Assembly: GCA_951828385.1 (NCBI GenBank)
Contig: OX639973.1
Span: forward strand, 4,269,200-4,333,199
DNA length: 64,000 nucleotides
Reading direction: 5' to 3'
Source: an uncultured Poribacteria bacterium
GTDB lineage: Bacteria; Poribacteria; WGA-4E; WGA-3G
Shown: positions 25,692 through 38,371 of the stretch, one piece after another
Layout: each line of letters opens with the position of its first letter
How positions within the stretch are numbered: position 1 is the stretch's first letter
Made by a program: the position numbers and the translations under genes
The notes under the pieces: generated by a model
The model's database searches: none
What the model was told of the DNA's origin: nothing
What the model saw: only the letters and a program-made list of their open reading frames with translations

Positions 25692-25857
25692 CAGCGCAAA
25701 AAAGGCGCGCTTGCCGAGTTTATCGCCCTAAGCATATTCAACTATTTCCCCAACTAAAACATCAAGGTAAAAATGCCTGAAAACCCAGTAAATATAAGGG
25801 TTCATGAACTTTTTTATCACCCCAATTTTAAAACGAAACCTATTTAGTCTATTATCC

Positions 25858-25886
25858 TTGTTTTTTTCTGAAATTTAGTGTATACT
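25858..25886 (+). promoter_or_regulatory. Probable promoter of the AT-rich gene pair
   Basis: TTGTTT (25858-25863), 17-base spacer, TATACT (25881-25886), about 50 to 65 bases before the first gene of the pair. Confidence 0.5.
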
Positions 25887-25933
25887 TAGAGTTATATCTT
25901 GATACTGTTATTAGGTTTATTTTAAGAATATTA

Positions 25934-26341
25934 TTGAAGGAATATAGGAAATTGAAATTATTAGGCTCACATTTAGATAATTGTCCTCCAGAAGATGCTG
26001 AACCCGCGTCAGGAATAGTATATTATCTTGTTCGGAATAATCCACCTCAAGAAGGAGATTTTATCCCTGGAATAGAAAAACACCCAAGTGTTTATAAACA
26101 CAGACCAAAAGATCAGATATGCCAAGCGCATGGATTTTCAGTATTTAAAGACATCGAAGATGCTTTGAAAATTAAAGAAGAATTTAACTCTCTTAAAGAC
26201 ACAGAACCTGCCGTAGGTGAATTAACTCCAGAATGTGGAGTGATTAAGAATACGCCTTCGCGGACTCGCCGTTCACATCACACATGGTGGCCACCTGATG
26301 GCATGAAAATATGGTCCTTATTTAAGATAGAAATGCAGTAA
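25934..26341 (+). CDS. Unknown protein in AT-rich accessory patch
   Basis: 135 residues or somewhat less. Start choices are TTG 25934 and TTG 25952; the latter has AAGGA and TAGGAAA in front. The middle (SGIVYYLVRNNPPQEGDFIPGIEKHPSVYKH) and C-terminal NTPSRTRRSHHTWWPPDGMKIWSLFKI have no motif I know. There is no signal peptide or membrane segment. The DNA is clearly more AT-rich than the surroundings, suggesting transfer. The next gene begins ten bases on with its own AAGGAAAG, so the two form an operon. A toxin/immunity or defence role is possible for such pairs, but nothing in the sequence proves it. Confidence 0.6.
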   Translation: MKEYRKLKLLGSHLDNCPPEDAEPASGIVYYLVRNNPPQEGDFIPGIEKHPSVYKHRPKDQICQAHGFSVFKDIEDALKIKEEFNSLKDTEPAVGELTPECGVIKNTPSRTRRSHHTWWPPDGMKIWSLFKIEMQ

Positions 26342-26351
26342 GGAAAGTATT

Positions 26352-26768
26352 ATGTCTGATATACTTAACATCCCAGAATTAGGCGAACTTGAGATTGTGG
26401 AAATATATGACTACTACAATGTGCCTATCCTTTTCTCATGTCGGAATTCTGTATCTCATCTATACATAGTTATCTTTGCAGATCACTTGCCTGAGTATGA
26501 GATGTGGCTCTATGCAGAAGTGTCGCTCATGCGCCTTAATCTCATACGATCTGGTGTAGTTGATCTTCATGATGCTTTTTCTAAGCCAGAAATGGGACGC
26601 TTACTTAAAGTGATGATCCCACACAGTAATTCTACGGAATTTAATTCTGAGTATGTTACTCCAGATCAACTTCACAGCGATGTATTTCCGCCTATTAATA
26701 AATACCTTAATTTTGGAGATACTCCTCTTGTTGCCCAGGCAAATTTGGTAGAAATAGCAAAATCATAA
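26352..26768 (+). CDS. Unknown protein (DUF6575-like?), reading frame ends at in-frame TAA
   Basis: 138 residues before the first stop. ELGELEIVEIYDYYNVPILFSCRN...LYIVIFADHLPEYEMWLYAEVS...GVVDLHDAF resembles the small DUF6575-type proteins, a tentative match from memory. After TAA 26766-26768 the same frame stays open for 135 more codons, so this is probably the front half of a roughly 273-residue protein. AAGGAAAG lies eight bases before the ATG. It is cotranscribed with the preceding unknown gene. AT-rich composition again marks it as accessory DNA. Confidence 0.65.
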   Translation: MSDILNIPELGELEIVEIYDYYNVPILFSCRNSVSHLYIVIFADHLPEYEMWLYAEVSLMRLNLIRSGVVDLHDAFSKPEMGRLLKVMIPHSNSTEFNSEYVTPDQLHSDVFPPINKYLNFGDTPLVAQANLVEIAKS

Positions 26769-27176
26769 AGGCTTCTTACATCACTTAGTGAGTCAGGTGC
26801 AGATACAACGTTCTCATGGGCATCACCAAAGTCAGATGAACAAAAGACAGTATCTTTATCAAAAAATGAAATACCTAAACTCATAGGAATTCTTCAGACC
26901 TTTCAAGAAGAACAAGAAACGCCTGTCACAGTTACTGGAGAATTAATTGGTATATCTCTTGGCAGTAAAAAATTTGAGATAAAGACGGAAAATAAAACTT
27001 ACAAAGGATTTATTTTAAAAGACGCTGATAGCAGTATAAAAAACGCAGCTGTGAGTCGTAGATATAAAGGACAAATTAAAGAAATATTAAACAAAAGCGA
27101 GGCAACAGATGAAATTGTCAAAACAGAATATTTACTACTAAAACTTGAGGAGATAGATTCTCAGTATTCTTCCTAA
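26769..27176 (+). pseudogene. Continuation of the DUF6575-like gene beyond an in-frame stop
   Basis: Directly after the TAA the frame of 26352-26768 continues as RLLTSLSESGADTTFSWASP and on to KLEEIDSQYSS with stop TAA 27174-27176, 135 codons without interruption in AT-rich DNA. No start codon with a ribosome binding site lies near its beginning, so independent translation is unlikely. A change of one base (for example CAA to TAA) would produce the break. TVTGELIGISLGSKKFEIKTENKTYKGFI looks like a small beta-rich domain. Confidence 0.6.
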
Positions 27177-27213
27177 CCAAAGTATTAAGTCTTAAAATTC
27201 TCCAAACTCAAAA

Positions 27214-28086
27214 CTACTTATTGCGTTCATATTTTTCCCTATACGCTTTTACCAAGTCTCCTTTCCGAAAGCCGGGGACAGCCGTAGCGCACTCCTGTGC
27301 CAGATGTTCGTAATCAATCTCCATCAAACGCGCTAAGACGGTAGGATTTTTCGCTTTCAAAAGTATCCACTGCTTATGCTTTTCACACTGCTTCTCGTCT
27401 GTCTCTCTACGCGAATAATCCTGCCACCCTTGACACGGGACAGCGAAATCAAATGGGTTCTGAAAGACTTTCAAAGCGTCAGGTGTGTTATTGTACTGCC
27501 ATATCTCAAAATCTTTATGTTGAATGGGTAGCGGTTTATATTGACGCATATCGTTGTGCGTGGTTGGTAAACGAGTCCATATCTGAAATTCGGTATTTAC
27601 TGCGTAAGACTTGCCTGTACTGAGGTGGAAGGCATCCCTTGGGAGCGGCAATTTGCTGATGAAGCGCATATCCCGGTCAAGCCGCTTGTGGGTGGTAAAT
27701 TTTCGGAAATTGACGGGGACAACAAAGGCGATGATGTCTGCTAAATGGGCTGCATGATTAAAGAAGGCTATTGCTAATTTGCCGCGTTTACCGAAAGGTG
27801 GATTCCCGATGACCACAGTATCTTGCGGGGCGGATGGTAAATCGGTGATTTTAAAAAAGTCTTGGCGTTTCACATCCTTACATTTCGGCACGAGATCGAT
27901 GCCGAATCGTTTTTTCGAGGGTAAGAGTTTGTAAAACGCACCGGTGCCGGCAGCAGGTTCGACAAAAAAGAGGTCGCTGAGATTCCGGTTTAGCGTCGAG
28001 AGCGTGTTTGTGAAATGCGCCCAACATGCTTCCGCGACCTCTGATTTAGTGTAAAACTGACCTAATAGATTCTCCAAACCTTCCAC
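27214..28086 (-). CDS. Solitary SAM-dependent DNA adenine methyltransferase
   Basis: A 290-residue methylase. Motif I, FVEPAAGTGAFY (about residues 41-52), binds S-adenosylmethionine. The catalytic motif IV, VVIGNPPFGKRG (about 91-102), is the (N/D)PP(F/Y) signature of N6-adenine methylases. It begins with LGQFYTKSEVAE, as in Type I/IIG-like M domains, but is short and lacks a target-recognition domain or nuclease. No restriction gene adjoins it, so it is an orphan methylase or anti-restriction remnant. The start is a GTG in AAAGGTGG context and is uncertain by a few codons. It converges with the AT-rich unknown pair. Confidence 0.8.
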   Translation of the reverse strand: MEGLENLLGQFYTKSEVAEACWAHFTNTLSTLNRNLSDLFFVEPAAGTGAFYKLLPSKKRFGIDLVPKCKDVKRQDFFKITDLPSAPQDTVVIGNPPFGKRGKLAIAFFNHAAHLADIIAFVVPVNFRKFTTHKRLDRDMRFISKLPLPRDAFHLSTGKSYAVNTEFQIWTRLPTTHNDMRQYKPLPIQHKDFEIWQYNNTPDALKVFQNPFDFAVPCQGWQDYSRRETDEKQCEKHKQWILLKAKNPTVLARLMEIDYEHLAQECATAVPGFRKGDLVKAYREKYERNK

Positions 28087-30539: not shown

Positions 30540-31727
30540 ATGAAGATTACGAACATTGAGACTTTTGTTGTGGACGCGGGGTGGCGGCCTTGGATTTTTG
30601 TGAAGGTGGAGACCGATGAAGGTATCACCGGCTACGGTGAATGTAGTGATGGCAGGAACCCTAACGGTGTGGCGGGGACTATCAAAGACCTCACACCGCT
30701 ACTCATCGGACGCGATCCGCGTGCTTATGAGATGCGGTTTTGGGATATGATTCGCGGTTCTCGGCAAAGCCCTGGCGGCATCGCTGCGAAAGGGATCGCG
30801 GGTATTGAGTGTGCGCTGGTGGATATTAAGGCGAAGGCGTTAGGAATCTCCGTTGTGGAACTGTTCGGTGGACCGACACGCGACGATGTGCGCGTCTATT
30901 GGTCGCACTGCGGTTCCTCTCGGGCACGCAACTATGAACTCATTGGGGTGCCACCTTTAAGAACGATGGACGACATCACCGCGTTAGGTCGAGAAGTTGT
31001 TGAGAAAGGATTCACCGCTCTCAAAACCAACATTGTTATTCCCGGCGACCCAGCTTCCGTCTATTTCCCTGGCTTCAGCAATGGACCCGGTACCACCGAC
31101 GGAAACGTAACACCTCAACTCCTGCGGCACATTGAAACCTTAATCGGCACCTTTAGAGAGGCAGTTGGTCCCGATGTTGGTATTAATCTTGATCTGAACT
31201 TCAATTTCAAACCGGAGGCGTGCATGCGTATCGCCAAGGTGCTTGAACCGTTCGACATGTTATGGTTAGAGATTGATATGTACGACCATGAGGCGCTCCG
31301 TCAAATCAAGGATTCCACGACGACGAAGATATGTACCGGCGAAAATCTCTATTACATGCGCGAGTATCTACCCTATTTTGAATGCCGTGCTGCCGATGTT
31401 TTCATGATAGATGTGCCGTGGAACGGATTCGCACCCTCAAAGAAGATTGGTGACTTGGCGAATGTGTTCCACCTCAATGTTGCGCCGCATAACTATTATA
31501 GCCACCTCGCTACCTATATGAGTGCGAGCCTCTGTGCCGTGTTACCGAATGTGCGGATCATGGAGATTGATATTGATGATGTTCCATGGAAAGACGACTT
31601 GACGACGCGCATCCCAGAAATTGTGGACGGCTATATGAAAACCCCGACGCGTCCCGGGTGGGGAACTGAGTTGAATGAAGAGGCAGTCAAAGCGCATCTC
31701 TGGGATAACCGGAGAGGCGATTGGTAA
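30540..31727 (+). CDS. Enolase-superfamily enzyme, sugar-acid dehydratase-like
   Basis: A 395-residue protein. The capping domain reads VKVETDEGITGYGECSDGRNP and the barrel carries AGIECALVDIKAKALG, LKTN, the metal ligands in GINLDLNFNFKPE, WLEIDMYD and CTGENLYY, and NVAPHNYYSHLATYMSASLCA. This pattern is close to galactonate/gluconate-type dehydratases of the mandelate racemase group. It probably removes water from a hexonate, Mg2+-dependent. GTAGGAGG lies upstream of the ATG. It is paired with the preceding Gfo/Idh gene; substrate not determined. Confidence 0.87.
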   Translation: MKITNIETFVVDAGWRPWIFVKVETDEGITGYGECSDGRNPNGVAGTIKDLTPLLIGRDPRAYEMRFWDMIRGSRQSPGGIAAKGIAGIECALVDIKAKALGISVVELFGGPTRDDVRVYWSHCGSSRARNYELIGVPPLRTMDDITALGREVVEKGFTALKTNIVIPGDPASVYFPGFSNGPGTTDGNVTPQLLRHIETLIGTFREAVGPDVGINLDLNFNFKPEACMRIAKVLEPFDMLWLEIDMYDHEALRQIKDSTTTKICTGENLYYMREYLPYFECRAADVFMIDVPWNGFAPSKKIGDLANVFHLNVAPHNYYSHLATYMSASLCAVLPNVRIMEIDIDDVPWKDDLTTRIPEIVDGYMKTPTRPGWGTELNEEAVKAHLWDNRRGDW

Positions 31728-31775: not shown

Positions 31776-34700
31776 ATGAACAGTGAAAACAATGTTTTGA
31801 ATGAGAAAAGTACTTCCATCAAGTCCAAGATTGAAGAAGCGGTGCTGATGGCACGTCAACGCCTTCTTGATGTGACGTTGAACAACCGTCTCCTGAACTA
31901 CCGGCCAAGTAGGCGGAGAACTATTCAGGTAGTTGACGAAATTCCGAAAGAAATTTTTGACATTCTCGTTTTGCAACCAAAGACCATGCAATTTAAACCA
32001 TCAGAAATTTCCGAGAAAGAAACTCGGTTGCTTTTTGAGGAGGAAGTTCTTAATGAGTACTTGCCTCTTCCGAACTTACCAGACACTGGCCCCTTAAAGC
32101 ACCATACTGATCGTCTTTTACAGACCAATTTGACAAAAAAAGAACTCCTCAAAAAGTTATCCTATGTTCACCGACAGGCTGAAACAGTCTTTAAAGAGCA
32201 GGGCTATTCCATTCTCTATCTTGCCCTTGGTTTTCTTGAATGGACAGAAATCGAACGTGCAAATCAGTTAAACAGGGCACCATTAATACTTATACCAATT
32301 GAGCTAATAAAACAGCAAAAAGTTCGCACCCGATTTAGTCTCAGTTGGAGTGGCGCGGAACTATTTCCGAACATATCTCTGGAAGCCAAACTCAGAGAAC
32401 AAGGTGTTGATCTTCCTACTCTTGAAACATTTGAGGAGAAAACTGCCGTTGATACCTATTTTCAGTCCGTGACCGATGCAATATCCCATCAGGAAAACTG
32501 GCGTGTTGTACCAGACATCTATCTTGATTTTTTTAGTTTCACCAAATTTGTAATGTATAGAGATTTGGATCCGACAAGCTGGGCAATAGGTGTTCATCCT
32601 TTGCTCGGGGAGATTCTTGGAGAATCTACCCAATCACCTGAAGTCAATGAGTTTAAACCAGAAGAAGTTGACCAAGTGCCGAGTCGCAATTTTTATCATG
32701 TGATGGACGCAGATTCTTCGCAGATTGCAGTTATAGAAGAAGTTAAAAAGGGGCGTAATTTGGTAGTTGAAGGCCCACCAGGAACTGGGAAGTCTCAAAC
32801 TATCGCAAATATTATTGCCGAACTTCTCGCTGCTGGCAAAAAAGTGCTTTTTGTCAGTGAAAAGATGGCTGCGCTTGAAGTCGTAAAAGAGCGACTTGAC
32901 AGTGTTGGTCTTGGGGATTTCTGCTTAGAGTTACACAGTCACAAATCTAATAAGCGTGAAGTCTTAAAAGAACTTAAACGAACGCTTGCTGCAGGATTGC
33001 CCCCAAAAACATGGCAGAATCAGATATTCGATCAAATTGATTTCCGTAAAAAGAGCCTCAACGCCTATGTCAATGTGCTCCATGAACCTATCAGTCAGAC
33101 ACAAAAGTCTCCTTTTACACTTTTCGGAATTCGCGAAATGGCACAATGTCATTTTGAAAAGGTTAAGCGCGACATGCCACGGATTATGTTTGCCAATCCA
33201 ACCGAAACTACACCGAATTGTTGGGACACAGCAAAGGAATGTCTCAATCAACTCACAACTATACTGCCTTTTGTGACTCCTATATCAAATAATCCTTGGC
33301 GTGGTTGCAAACCCGACATTGTAACACCTGCCTACGTGAAAGACACAAAAATATTAATTGATACATGTGTTAATGCCTTGGATGCTTTGGAAAAAGCAAT
33401 TCATGATCTCTCGGATGTTTGTGCGCTTCACATTCCTACGATGCTGGAAACTTTACCACAAGCCCTGATGGGTGTTGATGTAATTTTGAAGGCGATCCCT
33501 GTTGAACGAGAGGTTTTATTAAACGATGCTTGGAATCATCCAAATCGCGAGTCTGACACGTTAATCAAAAAAGTTGCAGACGTGCAGAAAGGCATTACTG
33601 AAGCCCATGCTAAGTTTGACAAAGCACAACTCATCGTTACTTTGGAAGCATTACAAGCGTTAGAAGGCACAATCCGTGATACTGAGGAAAATTGCGGCAT
33701 CCAACCCACTAGCACACCTGAAGATTTCCAATCCATGCTCAACACCGCGGATGTGATGGCAAAGTCAATTCCTGTTGAGCAAGAAGTGTTACGCAATGAA
33801 GCATGGAATAGTCCCAATCCTGAGGCTGAAAAACTTATTAAGCAAGTTGAAAGTGTTCGGAAAGTCCAGGCGAATGTGCTAACTATTTTTACTCCAGCAG
33901 CCTTAGAACAGGAGATTGACTCACTGCGTGATGAATATAAAAATTTATGTGGGATATTTCTGCCCTTTCGACTCTTCCACAGCAAATACAATTCTATTAG
34001 AAAGGAGATTCGCAGCTTTTACAAAGGAAAACCACCTCGTAAAATTGAGGATGAGAAAATTCTCAAAGATCTTGATGAACTGGGACGCTGTATTAAGAAG
34101 CGAAAAGAGATACAAGCGTTAGAGCAGATTGGTCGATCTTTATTTGGATCGCATTGGGAAGCAGAAAAGAGCGATCCTGCCCAACTCCGTCAGTTTGCGA
34201 AATGGATTGTGTTGTTTCGGAAAGAGCTTCTTGATGGTCCGTTGACTGACAGGGCAGTAGATATTGTGAGTGAAGGAATTGCAAGTAAACGTCTGAAAAA
34301 CCTCATTGAGCAAGCCAGAATACAACATAAGGATTTTGTAAAACAACGCGAAACTCTTTTCAGCCAACTTGAAATTGACACTAAAACCGTATTCGGTTTA
34401 GATACAGAAGATGTATCTTTTGGCGAACTCTCTTCACGACTTGAAATGTGGAAAACAGGACTGCCTTTATTTGATTCATGGATGCAATTCGCCAACAGCG
34501 AGATTGGCGATCCACCTCAAAAGCCGGAACAACTTATAGCGGACCTCGCTAAATTGTCACAATGTACTGACCTTCGGAAAGAAATTGAAGGTTTAGAACA
34601 AACTGGGCAGGATTTATTTGGTAGATATTGGCACGGTGAAGATAGCAATCTAAAACGACTAAACGAATTTGCAGAATGGATTGTGGATTTTCGCAAACAA

Positions 34701-37304
34701 CTAATTGGAGGTATTTTTACAAAACATGTTATTGATATAGTTAGTACTGGAGTAGATCAGAAACAAATTGAAGATCTCGCCAAGCAGGTTAAAGTTGCAG
34801 AAAACCATTTTGTGGAACAACGGGACGTTTTATTTGATCACCTTGGCACTGATGCGAAAGCTTTATTTGGTGTAGAAACTGAAAAAGCCTCTTTCACCGA
34901 ACTACGTTCGCATCTCGAATTATGGGGACAGCAACTAACTCGCCTTCAAGCGTGGGAGTCATTTGTAAGATTGCGCGACGCTTGTCAACAAACAATTGCA
35001 CAACCGCTAATTAATAGAATTGAAAGCGATATGCTTGAATCAGAGGACATAGTTTCATGCTTTGAGGGGAATCTTGCTGATGCTCTTCTTGACAAAGCAT
35101 TTCGCGAACGTCCTGAACTGCGCGATTTTGTCTTTAATCTACATGAAAAAAAAATAACACGTTTCCGAGAACTTGACAACGAGATCATAAATTTGAATCG
35201 ACTACGTCTCACTACTCAATTGCATCAGAACCGTCCTCGCCTGTTTAGAGGGGCATCCGCTGAGTCAGAAATCGGTATTCTGCAAAATCAATTCAGTCGA
35301 GAACGTGGGCACATGCCTATCCGAGAACTGTTAACAAAAACAGGTGGCTTAATCCAAAAAATTAAACCGTGTTTTATGATGGGTCCGCTCTCTATAGCAC
35401 AATTCTGCGATCCGCAGATGGTTCAATTTGACGTAGTTGTATTTGATGAAGCAAGCCAAATTCGTCTGGAAGACGCGCTTGGCGCGCTTTTGCGTGGCAA
35501 GCAAGCCATCGTAATTGGCGACACTCGCCAACTACCGCCCACCCGTTTTTTTGATGGTATCGTTGAAGATGATGAGGAAAAAGATGAAGATGATTTTATG
35601 AACCCAATCGTTGGTGTGGTAAGCATTTTAGATCTGTGTAGGCAAAGTGTTCCTATGAAGGAGTTGAAATGGCACTACCGCAGTCGGCACGAGTCTCTCA
35701 TTGCTGTTTCCAATCAGGAGTTTTATGACAATAACTTGTATGTCTTTCCATCGGCTATTGATAAAGTAGAACATTTGGGACTTAAGTTTGTACACATTCC
35801 TGATGCTGTCTATGACCGTGGTAAAAGTTCTACTAATCCGGAAGAGGCACAAGCTGTTGTTAAAGCTGCGTTTGCGCATTACCGAAATTATCCAAATAAA
35901 AGTCTTGGCATAGGCACATTTGGCATAAAACAACAACAAGCAATTCTTGACGAATTTGAAGTCCAATTCCAGCAGCAACCAGAAATGGTAGAATTTTTTG
36001 TGAGCAACCGAGAGGAATATTTTTTCGTTAAAAATTTGGAAACAATTCAAGGTGACGAACGCGACGTTATTTTCATAAGTGTCGGCTATGGATTCGGCAA
36101 GGATGGGAAACTCCATAAAAATTTCGGACCTCTTAACAGCGATGGTGGAGAACGCCGTTTGAATGTTCTCATCACGCGTGCTCGTGAGAAGTGTGTCGTC
36201 TTTTCAAATTTCCATGCAAGCGATCTTCAATTAGATATTGATGCGCCTTTTGGAGTGAGGGCACTGAAGACTTTTCTTGATTATGCCGAAACAGGGAATC
36301 TACCAATGGATAAACCTAACGATCCACTGGTAGATCCTGAGTCTCCGTTTGAAGAATCTGTGTACGAATTCCTGAGAAGCCAAGGTTATACTGTCAGTAA
36401 ACAGGTTGGGTGTGCAGGCTATCGGATTGATTTGGCGGTGGTCGATCCAAACGCGCTTGGACGTTATCTTATTGGCATTGAATGTGATGGAGTACCTTAC
36501 CACAGTTCACCTGTAGCAAGAGATAGGGATAGATTACGGCAGCAGCAACTTGAAAGGTTAGGATGGAAACTCCACCGTATTTGGTCAACAGATTGGTATC
36601 GCAATCGTGCTGAAACAAGACAACGACTTTTGGAAGCTGTTGAGCGTGCTAAGGCTGAAAAATTGTCACCGATTCCAATACCAAAACCTATTGATCCGCC
36701 AAAACCATCCGAGCCAGCCCTTTCTTCTGAATCCAATTTCAATCCCTCAAATCCTCTTTCTATTGCAGACCATGTTCAGGATTACCAAGTTTGTAAAGAC
36801 CTAAAAATCCCAATGCAGGGTAAGTTACACCTGCAAACTACATCCCAACTCGCCAAAGCTGTGAGAGAGGTTGTAAAAATCGAGAGCCCTGTCCATACAG
36901 ATTTAGTTGTCCTCCGAATTCGTCAACTCTGGGGATTAAAACGAGCAGGGGAACGAATTAAAAATGCGATTGAGAAGGGCGTAGCAGCTGCCCAAAGAGA
37001 CAAACTTATTCATAAGAATGGGGATTTTCTGTGGGCAGCAGACAATACGGAGATAAAGATTCGTTGTTGGACCAAACCCAAAATTGAGTGGATATGTGAA
37101 GAGGAAATTGTTGAGGCAATGAAACTTGTTCTAATTTTACAAGGTGCTATCACACCTGAGGCATTAATAAGGGAAGCCGCTAAACTTTTCGGTTACAAAT
37201 CTGTAGGGGAAATTATTATGCGGAGGATGAAATCGCTCTTGGACAAGTTCGTCAAAGTGGATAAATTTCAGATCTTACCAAACAGTAGGGTGCAACTATT
37301 ATGA
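31776..37304 (+). CDS. DUF4011-SF1 helicase-Vsr/MTES_1575-type nuclease-DUF3320 protein, candidate single-gene anti-phage system
   Basis: A 1842-residue multidomain protein. Residues about 10-300 fit DUF4011 (LMARQRLLDVTLNNRLLNYRPSRR...LGFLEWTE). Then comes an SF1 helicase split by a very long insert: Walker A EGPPGTGKSQT (about 331-341), and after the insert Walker B VVFDEASQI (about 1220-1228), motif III IGDTRQLPP, motif V ETIQGDERDVIFIS and motif VI LNVLITRARE (about 1460-1469). A PD-(D/E)XK nuclease follows at about 1527-1640: RIDLAVVDP, YLIGIECDG, YHSSPVARDRDRLRQ. A DUF3320 domain at about 1670-1750 (ESPVHTDLVVLRIRQLWG) ends it. The insert holds two kinds of internal duplication. This layout matches single-gene DUF4011-helicase-Vsr defence proteins I recall as Hhe. 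All catalytic motifs look intact. GGGAGA precedes the ATG. Confidence 0.88.
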   Translation: MNSENNVLNEKSTSIKSKIEEAVLMARQRLLDVTLNNRLLNYRPSRRRTIQVVDEIPKEIFDILVLQPKTMQFKPSEISEKETRLLFEEEVLNEYLPLPNLPDTGPLKHHTDRLLQTNLTKKELLKKLSYVHRQAETVFKEQGYSILYLALGFLEWTEIERANQLNRAPLILIPIELIKQQKVRTRFSLSWSGAELFPNISLEAKLREQGVDLPTLETFEEKTAVDTYFQSVTDAISHQENWRVVPDIYLDFFSFTKFVMYRDLDPTSWAIGVHPLLGEILGESTQSPEVNEFKPEEVDQVPSRNFYHVMDADSSQIAVIEEVKKGRNLVVEGPPGTGKSQTIANIIAELLAAGKKVLFVSEKMAALEVVKERLDSVGLGDFCLELHSHKSNKREVLKELKRTLAAGLPPKTWQNQIFDQIDFRKKSLNAYVNVLHEPISQTQKSPFTLFGIREMAQCHFEKVKRDMPRIMFANPTETTPNCWDTAKECLNQLTTILPFVTPISNNPWRGCKPDIVTPAYVKDTKILIDTCVNALDALEKAIHDLSDVCALHIPTMLETLPQALMGVDVILKAIPVEREVLLNDAWNHPNRESDTLIKKVADVQKGITEAHAKFDKAQLIVTLEALQALEGTIRDTEENCGIQPTSTPEDFQSMLNTADVMAKSIPVEQEVLRNEAWNSPNPEAEKLIKQVESVRKVQANVLTIFTPAALEQEIDSLRDEYKNLCGIFLPFRLFHSKYNSIRKEIRSFYKGKPPRKIEDEKILKDLDELGRCIKKRKEIQALEQIGRSLFGSHWEAEKSDPAQLRQFAKWIVLFRKELLDGPLTDRAVDIVSEGIASKRLKNLIEQARIQHKDFVKQRETLFSQLEIDTKTVFGLDTEDVSFGELSSRLEMWKTGLPLFDSWMQFANSEIGDPPQKPEQLIADLAKLSQCTDLRKEIEGLEQTGQDLFGRYWHGEDSNLKRLNEFAEWIVDFRKQLIGGIFTKHVIDIVSTGVDQKQIEDLAKQVKVAENHFVEQRDVLFDHLGTDAKALFGVETEKASFTELRSHLELWGQQLTRLQAWESFVRLRDACQQTIAQPLINRIESDMLESEDIVSCFEGNLADALLDKAFRERPELRDFVFNLHEKKITRFRELDNEIINLNRLRLTTQLHQNRPRLFRGASAESEIGILQNQFSRERGHMPIRELLTKTGGLIQKIKPCFMMGPLSIAQFCDPQMVQFDVVVFDEASQIRLEDALGALLRGKQAIVIGDTRQLPPTRFFDGIVEDDEEKDEDDFMNPIVGVVSILDLCRQSVPMKELKWHYRSRHESLIAVSNQEFYDNNLYVFPSAIDKVEHLGLKFVHIPDAVYDRGKSSTNPEEAQAVVKAAFAHYRNYPNKSLGIGTFGIKQQQAILDEFEVQFQQQPEMVEFFVSNREEYFFVKNLETIQGDERDVIFISVGYGFGKDGKLHKNFGPLNSDGGERRLNVLITRAREKCVVFSNFHASDLQLDIDAPFGVRALKTFLDYAETGNLPMDKPNDPLVDPESPFEESVYEFLRSQGYTVSKQVGCAGYRIDLAVVDPNALGRYLIGIECDGVPYHSSPVARDRDRLRQQQLERLGWKLHRIWSTDWYRNRAETRQRLLEAVERAKAEKLSPIPIPKPIDPPKPSEPALSSESNFNPSNPLSIADHVQDYQVCKDLKIPMQGKLHLQTTSQLAKAVREVVKIESPVHTDLVVLRIRQLWGLKRAGERIKNAIEKGVAAAQRDKLIHKNGDFLWAADNTEIKIRCWTKPKIEWICEEEIVEAMKLVLILQGAITPEALIREAAKLFGYKSVGEIIMRRMKSLLDKFVKVDKFQILPNSRVQLL

Positions 37305-37306
37305 TG

Positions 37307-38371
37307 TCACTGTAGGATGGTAACATCATCCGCACTATGGACGGGGTGAGGGTTCAGATCGTAGTCACCATCCAGTGAAATATCGTCAATAAGGACAACC
37401 TTTCTTGACCTCGCGGATTGGTGCATAGCGAAAAACGTCTGGACAATGTGCAAGTTGCTGCGACCATTCGTGATCGGTTTTTCACCCGTTTGCAAGCACT
37501 CCAAGAAGTGAGCCATCACGTTTCCAAAGGCATCGGGGAACCACGTTCCCTCTATCGACGGTTTAATTTCACGTGTCTCCGGCTGCGTGAGGTGAACCGT
37601 CAGGTCGGCACTGTTTCCGTAGATAGCACCTTTGGTGCCTTGGATGCGGATTTCCTCGTGTGGGTGCTGTAAGTTGCGTCCGGGATTGGCAAGGAACGCC
37701 CAGTTACACGAAAGCAAACCCTGTACACCGCTCCGACTTTTGAAAAGCGCGACGGAAACGGTTTCGCCTTCCTCAATTGAGCGGTTATGTCCGTGTGCTT
37801 GGCAGTAAACGCTTTCGTATTCGCCGAACCATTTATGGACAAGCCCGATATGGTGTACTTGCATCGCGGGGATCAAGTGGCGTTCAGGGAATTCGGTATA
37901 AAATCCGTTGCAGGTTATGGAAACGTGGTAGATTTCGCCGAGGTGTTCAGCGTTGATGTAGGGTTCAATAGCGAGGAAACCGGGAACAAAGCACGAGTTT
38001 TGGTTCACCATAAGCTGCACGTTGTATCGCTCACAGATGTTGACCATTTCAACTGCCTGTTGCATTGACATAGCGAAGGGTTTTTGGCAGAGGATATGCT
38101 TACCGGCTTCGGCAGCGGCTTTAACGATAGGGGAACGGATCCAGGGTTGCACCGCCATGTCAACCACGTCAACATCGGTATCAGCAATTAGATCAGCGAT
38201 GCAGGTGTATCTTTTATTGATACCAAAGGTGTTACCCACTTCGTTGAGGCGTGTAACGTCTTTGTCGCAAATCGCAGCAACGCGTAAGTTTTGCCGCTGG
38301 TAACCGAGCAGGTGCTGTTGCCCAATACCCAACCCGATTAAGCCGATCCCAAATTCTTGCTTGTCTGCCAT
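37307..38371 (-). CDS. Gfo/Idh/MocA family oxidoreductase
   Basis: A 354-residue dehydrogenase with GIGLIGLGIGQQHLLGYQ (GxGxxG-like, residues 8-25). The family EKP lysine motif appears as ILCQKPFAMS (about 93-102), with Gln in place of the usual Glu. PAMQVHHIGLVHKWFG carries candidate active-site His residues. It should oxidise a sugar or inositol-like substrate with NAD(P). It ends two bases from the end of the large helicase-nuclease gene (convergent). A second Gfo/Idh gene lies 21 bases upstream in the same direction, making a two-gene operon. Confidence 0.88.
   Translation of the reverse strand: MADKQEFGIGLIGLGIGQQHLLGYQRQNLRVAAICDKDVTRLNEVGNTFGINKRYTCIADLIADTDVDVVDMAVQPWIRSPIVKAAAEAGKHILCQKPFAMSMQQAVEMVNICERYNVQLMVNQNSCFVPGFLAIEPYINAEHLGEIYHVSITCNGFYTEFPERHLIPAMQVHHIGLVHKWFGEYESVYCQAHGHNRSIEEGETVSVALFKSRSGVQGLLSCNWAFLANPGRNLQHPHEEIRIQGTKGAIYGNSADLTVHLTQPETREIKPSIEGTWFPDAFGNVMAHFLECLQTGEKPITNGRSNLHIVQTFFAMHQSARSRKVVLIDDISLDGDYDLNPHPVHSADDVTILQ

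What the first reader, a model, noticed from the sequence alone, without database searches (positions are those of the whole stretch)
31776..37304. Giant DUF4011-helicase-nuclease-DUF3320 protein, likely a one-gene defence system
All parts of a DUF4011/SF1 helicase/Vsr-like nuclease/DUF3320 protein are in one intact 1842-residue frame: Walker A, DEAS, GDTRQLPP, motif VI, and an IDLAV...IECDG nuclease. This is the architecture of a single-gene anti-phage system I recall as Hhe. It stands alone between metabolic genes with no partner, in DNA with lower GC than neighbours.
Basis: partly seen in the sequence, partly recalled or inferred. Interest (0 to 1): 0.7.

Follow-up and report, generated by a model that had tools for sequence, protein, structure and literature searches.

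The report
Anti-phage helicase-nuclease with duplicated arm
This is one large, intact bacterial protein of a known kind of single-gene phage defence (a helicase fused to a DNA-cutting domain); its long helical arm has been lengthened by two duplications and partly swapped between relatives, which makes the arm a testable candidate for the part that senses the virus.

Summary
The 1842-residue frame and all named domains and motifs are confirmed: DUF4011, an SF1 helicase (Upf1/Sen1/Dna2-like by fold), a Vsr-like nuclease and DUF3320, predicted here to be tandem winged helices. "Hhe" is the wrong subfamily. The best matches are PADLOC PDC-S37 (1821 bits against 681 for Hhe) and NCBIfam ProA (1431 bits, just under its cut-off of 1500). 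The gene belongs to a well-supported clade with methanogen, Electryoneota and Cloacimonadota proteins. The host family is Candidatus Poribacteria.

The gene is accessory: intact in 3 of 38 genus genomes, broken in one, a remnant in another. It sits beside the same enolase-family gene in four genera, and that slot is empty in many relatives. Its four-fold-site identity exceeds that of the neighbouring gene, so it moved between genera without its flank.

The unexpected part is the helicase insert, an all-helical arm. Both halves are duplicated in the order A A B B. Across the family the insert length goes in steps (about 575, 830, up to 1,480 residues) through separate duplications, and in this genus the arm is a recombinant mosaic. 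Known kind, variant arm; sensing by the arm is a hypothesis. Phage defence is inferred, not tested.

The parts
31776..37304 (+). single gene, 1842-aa DUF4011 / Upf1-like SF1 helicase / Vsr-like nuclease / DUF3320 protein
31860..32393 (+). DUF4011 domain (residues 29-206)
   Evidence: E 9e-39
32676..33017 (+). first part of RecA1 with Walker A and motif Ia (residues 301-414)
33018..35270 (+). helical arm inserted in RecA1 between motifs Ia and II (about residues 415-1165); only helices in the model
   Evidence: pLDDT mostly 80-95, lower at about residues 600-650 and 840-930
33321..33956 (+). duplicated A unit (516-642 versus 607-727, offset about 91 residues)
   Evidence: score 178, shuffle maximum 40; both copies align to the same stretch of single-copy G064
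34026..34451 (+). B unit copy 1 (residues 751-892)
   Evidence: (score 338, shuffle maximum 56)
34506..34925 (+). B unit copy 2 (residues 911-1050)
33756..34865 (+). recombinant mosaic stretch of the arm (residues 661-1030)
35271..36221 (+). rest of RecA1 (motifs II, III) and RecA2 (motifs IV-VI), residues 1166-1482
36348..36638 (+). Vsr-like nuclease (REase_MTES_1575), residues 1525-1621, acidic residues of IDLAV and ECDG intact
36768..37301 (+). C-terminal predicted tandem winged helices containing DUF3320 (about residues 1665-1842)
30540..31727 (+). conserved left flank: MR_MLE (enolase family) gene beside which the DUF4011 gene lies in four genera
37307..38371 (-). right flank in this genus: Gfo/Idh/MocA oxidoreductase gene

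Best explanation
A one-gene, nucleic-acid-cutting anti-phage protein of the DUF4011 / Upf1-like helicase / Vsr-like nuclease / DUF3320 superfamily (PADLOC PDC-S37; nearest curated name ProA), but a separate clade from Hhe and just outside the ProA cut-off. Likely mechanism: the winged helices and the Upf1/Dna2-like ATPase load on an invader's DNA (ends, single-stranded or replicating DNA); the long helical arm on RecA1 gates or senses the substrate or a phage factor; ATP turnover then licenses the Vsr-like domain to cut. Shown here: domains, intact motifs, purifying selection, accessory distribution, horizontal exchange at a fixed site, arm duplication and arm recombination. Inferred: phage as the target, DNA as the substrate, the arm as the sensor.
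For: Domains above curated cut-offs. The two curated anti-phage families of this architecture are its best full-length matches, as is PDC-S37. Fold matches: helicase to Senataxin, Sen1, Dna2, Upf1; nuclease to I-Bth0305I (TM-score 0.80 by target) and Vsr; C terminus to SelB winged helices. Patchy: intact in 3 of 38 genus genomes, one broken, one remnant, slot of 19-124 bp in 18 genomes. Moved between genera: four-fold-site identity to G067 is 67.7% for the gene and 33.5% for the adjacent MR_MLE gene. Relatives in 333 plasmid records, 203 conjugative. Arm: duplications and mosaicism. Selection: dN/dS 0.26.
Against: No phage assay. No defence neighbours in the window apart from a core orphan MTase. 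The locus beside MR_MLE is old in the family, unlike a typical mobile defence island. The ProA cut-off is missed. Upf1-like helicases also act on RNA, so DNA as the substrate is not secured. No structural match explains the arm.
Confidence: 0.68

Rival explanations
1. It is an Hhe system proper.
For: Same domain order; significant match to the Hhe models.
Against: 681 bits against 1821 for PDC-S37 and about 4295 for a true Hhe; half the Hhe cut-off; in the tree Hhe is a distant single branch; the arm B module was not detected in Hhe.
Confidence: 0.05
2. It is a DNA repair or genome maintenance helicase-nuclease (Dna2-like) that is accessory in these bacteria.
For: Fold match to Dna2 and Sen1; Vsr-like nuclease; an old, fixed chromosomal site in the family.
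Against: Absent from most congeners, horizontally exchanged, carried by plasmids, nearest curated families are anti-phage.
Confidence: 0.12
3. It acts on RNA: a Upf1-like RNA helicase coupled to a nuclease, as predicted for CoCoNuT type II/III systems, in which a Upf1-like helicase with a coiled-coil insertion works with a nuclease effector (Vsr-like and fused to the helicase in type III-B).
For: Best fold matches are RNA helicases Senataxin, Sen1 and Upf1; winged-helix matches include SelB bound to RNA; the CoCoNuT analogy (PMC11090510).
Against: Vsr and I-Bth0305I are DNA endonucleases; Dna2 is among the top matches; no McrB GTPase partner.
Confidence: 0.15

Closest known systems
ProA (NCBIfam NF058533; probably the DefenseFinder 'Prometheus' system, a link I could not verify)
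   Same: Full-length match of 1431 bits, same domain order, single gene.
   Different: Below the curated cut-off of 1500; own clade with methanogen proteins; two-unit arm, whereas many ProA-like proteins have one unit.
PDC-S37 (PADLOC candidate)
   Same: Best PADLOC match, 1821 bits, three stretches.
   Different: The model (1550 positions) is of the length of one-unit proteins; PDC-S37 is only a candidate system.
Hhe (NCBIfam NF042953)
   Same: DUF4011, SF1 helicase, Vsr-like nuclease, single gene.
   Different: 1014 against a cut-off of 2000; arm module not detected in Klebsiella Hhe.
CoCoNuT CnuH helicases (PMC11090510)
   Same: Upf1-like SF1 helicase with a helical/coiled-coil insertion, with a Vsr-like nuclease fused in type III-B.
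   Different: Works with a McrB GTPase and other partners; DUF4011 is not mentioned in that paper; this gene stands alone.
Eukaryotic Upf1/Sen1/Dna2 helicases
   Same: Fold of the helicase core.
   Different: Far longer all-helical insert in RecA1; fused Vsr-like nuclease and winged helices.

Membership tests
DUF4011 / SF1 helicase / Vsr-like nuclease / DUF3320 superfamily | All four domains above Pfam cut-offs in one frame | tested here: met
DUF4011 / SF1 helicase / Vsr-like nuclease / DUF3320 superfamily | Intact helicase motifs and nuclease acidic residues | tested here: met
DUF4011 / SF1 helicase / Vsr-like nuclease / DUF3320 superfamily | Single gene without an obligate partner | tested here: met
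   stands alone here and in several inspected relatives
ProA (NF058533) | Score at or above the curated cut-off of 1500 bits | tested here: not met
   1431; Methanosarcina relative 1358 and L123 1491 also miss it, L117, L095 and L099 pass
ProA (NF058533) | Groups with cut-off-passing proteins in a tree | tested here: inconclusive
   window clade joins the clade that holds them at a starred branch (95, quick tree) but is separate from it
ProA (NF058533) | Protects against phage | not testable with these tools
   needs an assay
Hhe (NF042953) | Score at or above the curated cut-off of 2000 bits | tested here: not met
   1014
PDC-S37 (PADLOC) | Best PADLOC model, near full length | tested here: met
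   1821 bits, E 0
Upf1-like SF1B helicases | Helicase fold closest to Upf1, Sen1, Dna2 | tested here: met
   E 1e-8 to 1e-6 for the top hits; low TM-scores, because the arm has no counterpart

The most novel reading that the evidence does not exclude
The arm is the recognition module of this defence family: a helical arm that lengthens in steps by duplicating matching segments on its outgoing and returning halves (A A B B) and is swapped between otherwise diverging proteins by recombination, so that arm length and sequence set which phages or phage factors are sensed, in the way that target-recognition domains are swapped in type I restriction enzymes.
Probability: 0.3. Interest if true: 0.72.

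Novelty: new variant of a known kind. Interest (0 to 1): 0.5.

Why it matters
Large helicase-nuclease proteins are common phage defences, but how they tell phage from host is mostly unknown. This gene points to one specific, recombining, length-variable part as the candidate sensor, and the natural series of one-unit and two-unit arms in closely related bacteria gives ready-made comparisons to test it. It also shows a defence-type gene exchanged between genera at one fixed chromosomal site without an evident island or mobile element.

Tried and rejected
Hhe identity: rejected on scores and tree. Recent foreign island: rejected as stated, since the same gene lies beside MR_MLE in four genera, though between-genus exchange is supported. 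A MTase partner: rejected, it is core in the genus. A single tandem AB duplication: rejected, because the offsets differ (91 for A, 158 for B) and both copies of each map to one stretch in single-copy relatives. 'Two-copy proteins are one clade': the core tree puts two-copy G012 nearer single-copy G062-G064, but the AU test does not reject one clade (p 0.08), so arm exchange rests on the site-pattern mosaic and on the B2 copies of G008 and G012 pairing. Arm mosaicism as a family-wide rule: not seen in third-position identities of other close pairs. Both arm halves always growing together: holds in most multi-copy rows, but L096 grows on the B side only and L150, L154, L156 and L172 mainly on the A side. 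A first tree was spoiled by spurious reading frames and discarded. The PDB sequence search found only Upf1/Sen1/SMUBP-2-type helicases. Literature searches found no paper describing PDC-S37 or ProA.

Full report
What is there. The frame 31776..37304 (+) is an intact 1842-residue gene.

Which family. PADLOC prefers PDC-S37 (1821 bits) over Hhe (681). NCBIfam prefers ProA (1431, cut-off 1500) over Hhe (1014, cut-off 2000). An annotated Hhe from a Klebsiella plasmid scores 4295 on the Hhe model. So this is not Hhe; it is a ProA-like protein just outside the ProA cut-off. In a tree of 87 proteins (arm left out) it falls, with 100% SH-aLRT support, in a 14-row clade with methanogens, Ca. Electryoneota and Ca. 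Cloacimonadota. A second lineage of the superfamily occurs in the same bacterial family at another locus; one of those proteins (G074, same family as the window) is identical in the compared columns to a record titled Candidatus Poribacteria, which identifies the host group. The link between the NCBI name ProA and the DefenseFinder name Prometheus (seen in surveys such as PMC12629846) is my inference.

Structure. AlphaFold2 models of two pieces were made. The C terminus (mean pLDDT 88) matches the catalytic domain of homing endonuclease I-Bth0305I (TM-score 0.80 by target) and Vsr, then SelB winged helices (E-values from about 7e-3 to 0.1, so supportive rather than strong). The helicase piece (mean pLDDT 82) matches Senataxin, Sen1, Dna2 and Upf1. 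The roughly 750-residue insert between motifs Ia and II is modelled as helices only, and has no convincing solved relative. No coordinates were available, so the antiparallel hairpin is an inference from sequence.

The arm. Two duplications lie in the insert: A (516-642 versus 607-727) and B (751-892 versus 911-1050), scoring 178 and 338 against shuffle maxima of 40 and 56. Both A copies, and both B copies, map to one stretch each in one-unit relatives from other genera. The order A A B B, with different offsets, excludes one simple tandem copy; it is what lengthening of an out-and-back arm would need, by two duplications or by a copy placed at the tip. Across 87 family members the B module was found in 78: once in 57, twice in 18, three times in 2 and four times in 1. 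Nearly all single-copy proteins keep an almost constant spacing (about 258-277 residues before B, about 162-185 after), while most multi-copy ones grow on both sides. B copies of the window lineage are each other's kin, as are those of L162, so the duplications arose separately several times. Exceptions (L096, L150, L154, L156, L172) grow mainly on one side.

Arm recombination. Between the window, G008 and G012, sites shared by window and G008 dominate outside the arm, but residues 841-960 are shared mostly by window and G012 and 961-1030 by G008 and G012 (Fisher p 4e-53; peak windows 39 and 41 against permutation maxima of 28 and 24). Sites are linked, so the p-value is a guide only. The B2 copies of G008 and G012 also pair in a tree (85/97), while the cores pair window with G008 (100/100). 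An AU test does not reject a single clade of two-unit proteins (p 0.08). Third-position identities in other close pairs do not show the same pattern, so this is shown for this set only.

Gain, loss and exchange. The gene is intact in 3 of 38 genus genomes, broken in G013 and a remnant in G010. Of 30 genomes with both flanks on one contig, 18 have a gap of 19-124 bp. The slot in G029 instead holds a TnpB-like transposon gene and a small DUF433/DUF5615-like pair, judged by their sequence (not searched in Pfam). In G062, G063, G064, G066, G067 and G072 the gene also lies directly beside MR_MLE: an old address. Yet four-fold-site identity between the window and G067 is 67.7% for the gene and 33.5% for MR_MLE, and with G008 78.5% against 56.6%: the gene has travelled more recently than its flank. 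The stretch of G067 around the gene is low in GC (0.407, gene 0.397), which offers an explanation for the low GC in the window. Relatives lie on 333 plasmid records, 203 of them predicted conjugative.

How it probably works. Established knowledge of Upf1/Dna2-like helicases and Vsr-like nucleases, with the winged helices, suggests ATP-dependent engagement of invader nucleic acid followed by cutting, with the arm as gate or sensor. CoCoNuT helicases, which pair a Upf1-like helicase having a helical insertion with a nuclease (fused Vsr-like in type III-B; PMC11090510), are the nearest described analogy and keep an RNA target open. [quoted passage not shown] PMC13381803) show that helicase/ATPase-nuclease defences of this general logic exist.

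Verdict. A new variant of a known kind: ordinary in its domains, unusual in the arm. The duplication and the mosaic are computed results; sensing by the arm is a hypothesis (about 0.3).

Noticed in passing
window 27217-28086 (-): Type II methyltransferase-like gene (PADLOC MTase_II, E 8e-42) with homologues in 36 of 38 genus genomes, about 3.7 kb upstream of the finding: an apparently core orphan methyltransferase.
   Followed up: partly
window 25700-27200: Low-GC stretch (about 0.40-0.42) with only short frames (up to about 169 aa) next to the methyltransferase.
   Followed up: no
L076 4200-9500 (G029): The same MR_MLE/Gfo slot holds a TnpB-like (IS200/605-type) gene, a small DUF433/DUF5615-like pair and other frames instead of the helicase-nuclease gene.
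   Followed up: partly
L026, L023, L041, L040 just after the MR_MLE gene: A shared repeat (AAGGCTATAGTAGTACAAGTAA) sits in the slot of four genomes without the gene, perhaps a small non-coding mobile element.
   Followed up: no
L083, L084, L085, L088, L198: A second, one-unit DUF4011 lineage lies at a conserved site near a phosphoglycerate-mutase-like gene in several relatives; it is broken in G016.
   Followed up: partly
L107, L108, L109: Methanobrevibacter relatives carry roughly 1,000-1,200 residues after the helicase instead of about 360: a different, long C-terminal half.
   Followed up: no
L179 and L180: DUF262 genes lie next to both the Klebsiella Hhe gene and a Vibrio plasmid relative.
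   Followed up: no
L140 and L126: Recent-looking arm duplications: sister proteins L153 and L135 have one B unit, these have two (L140 copies 54% identical).
   Followed up: partly
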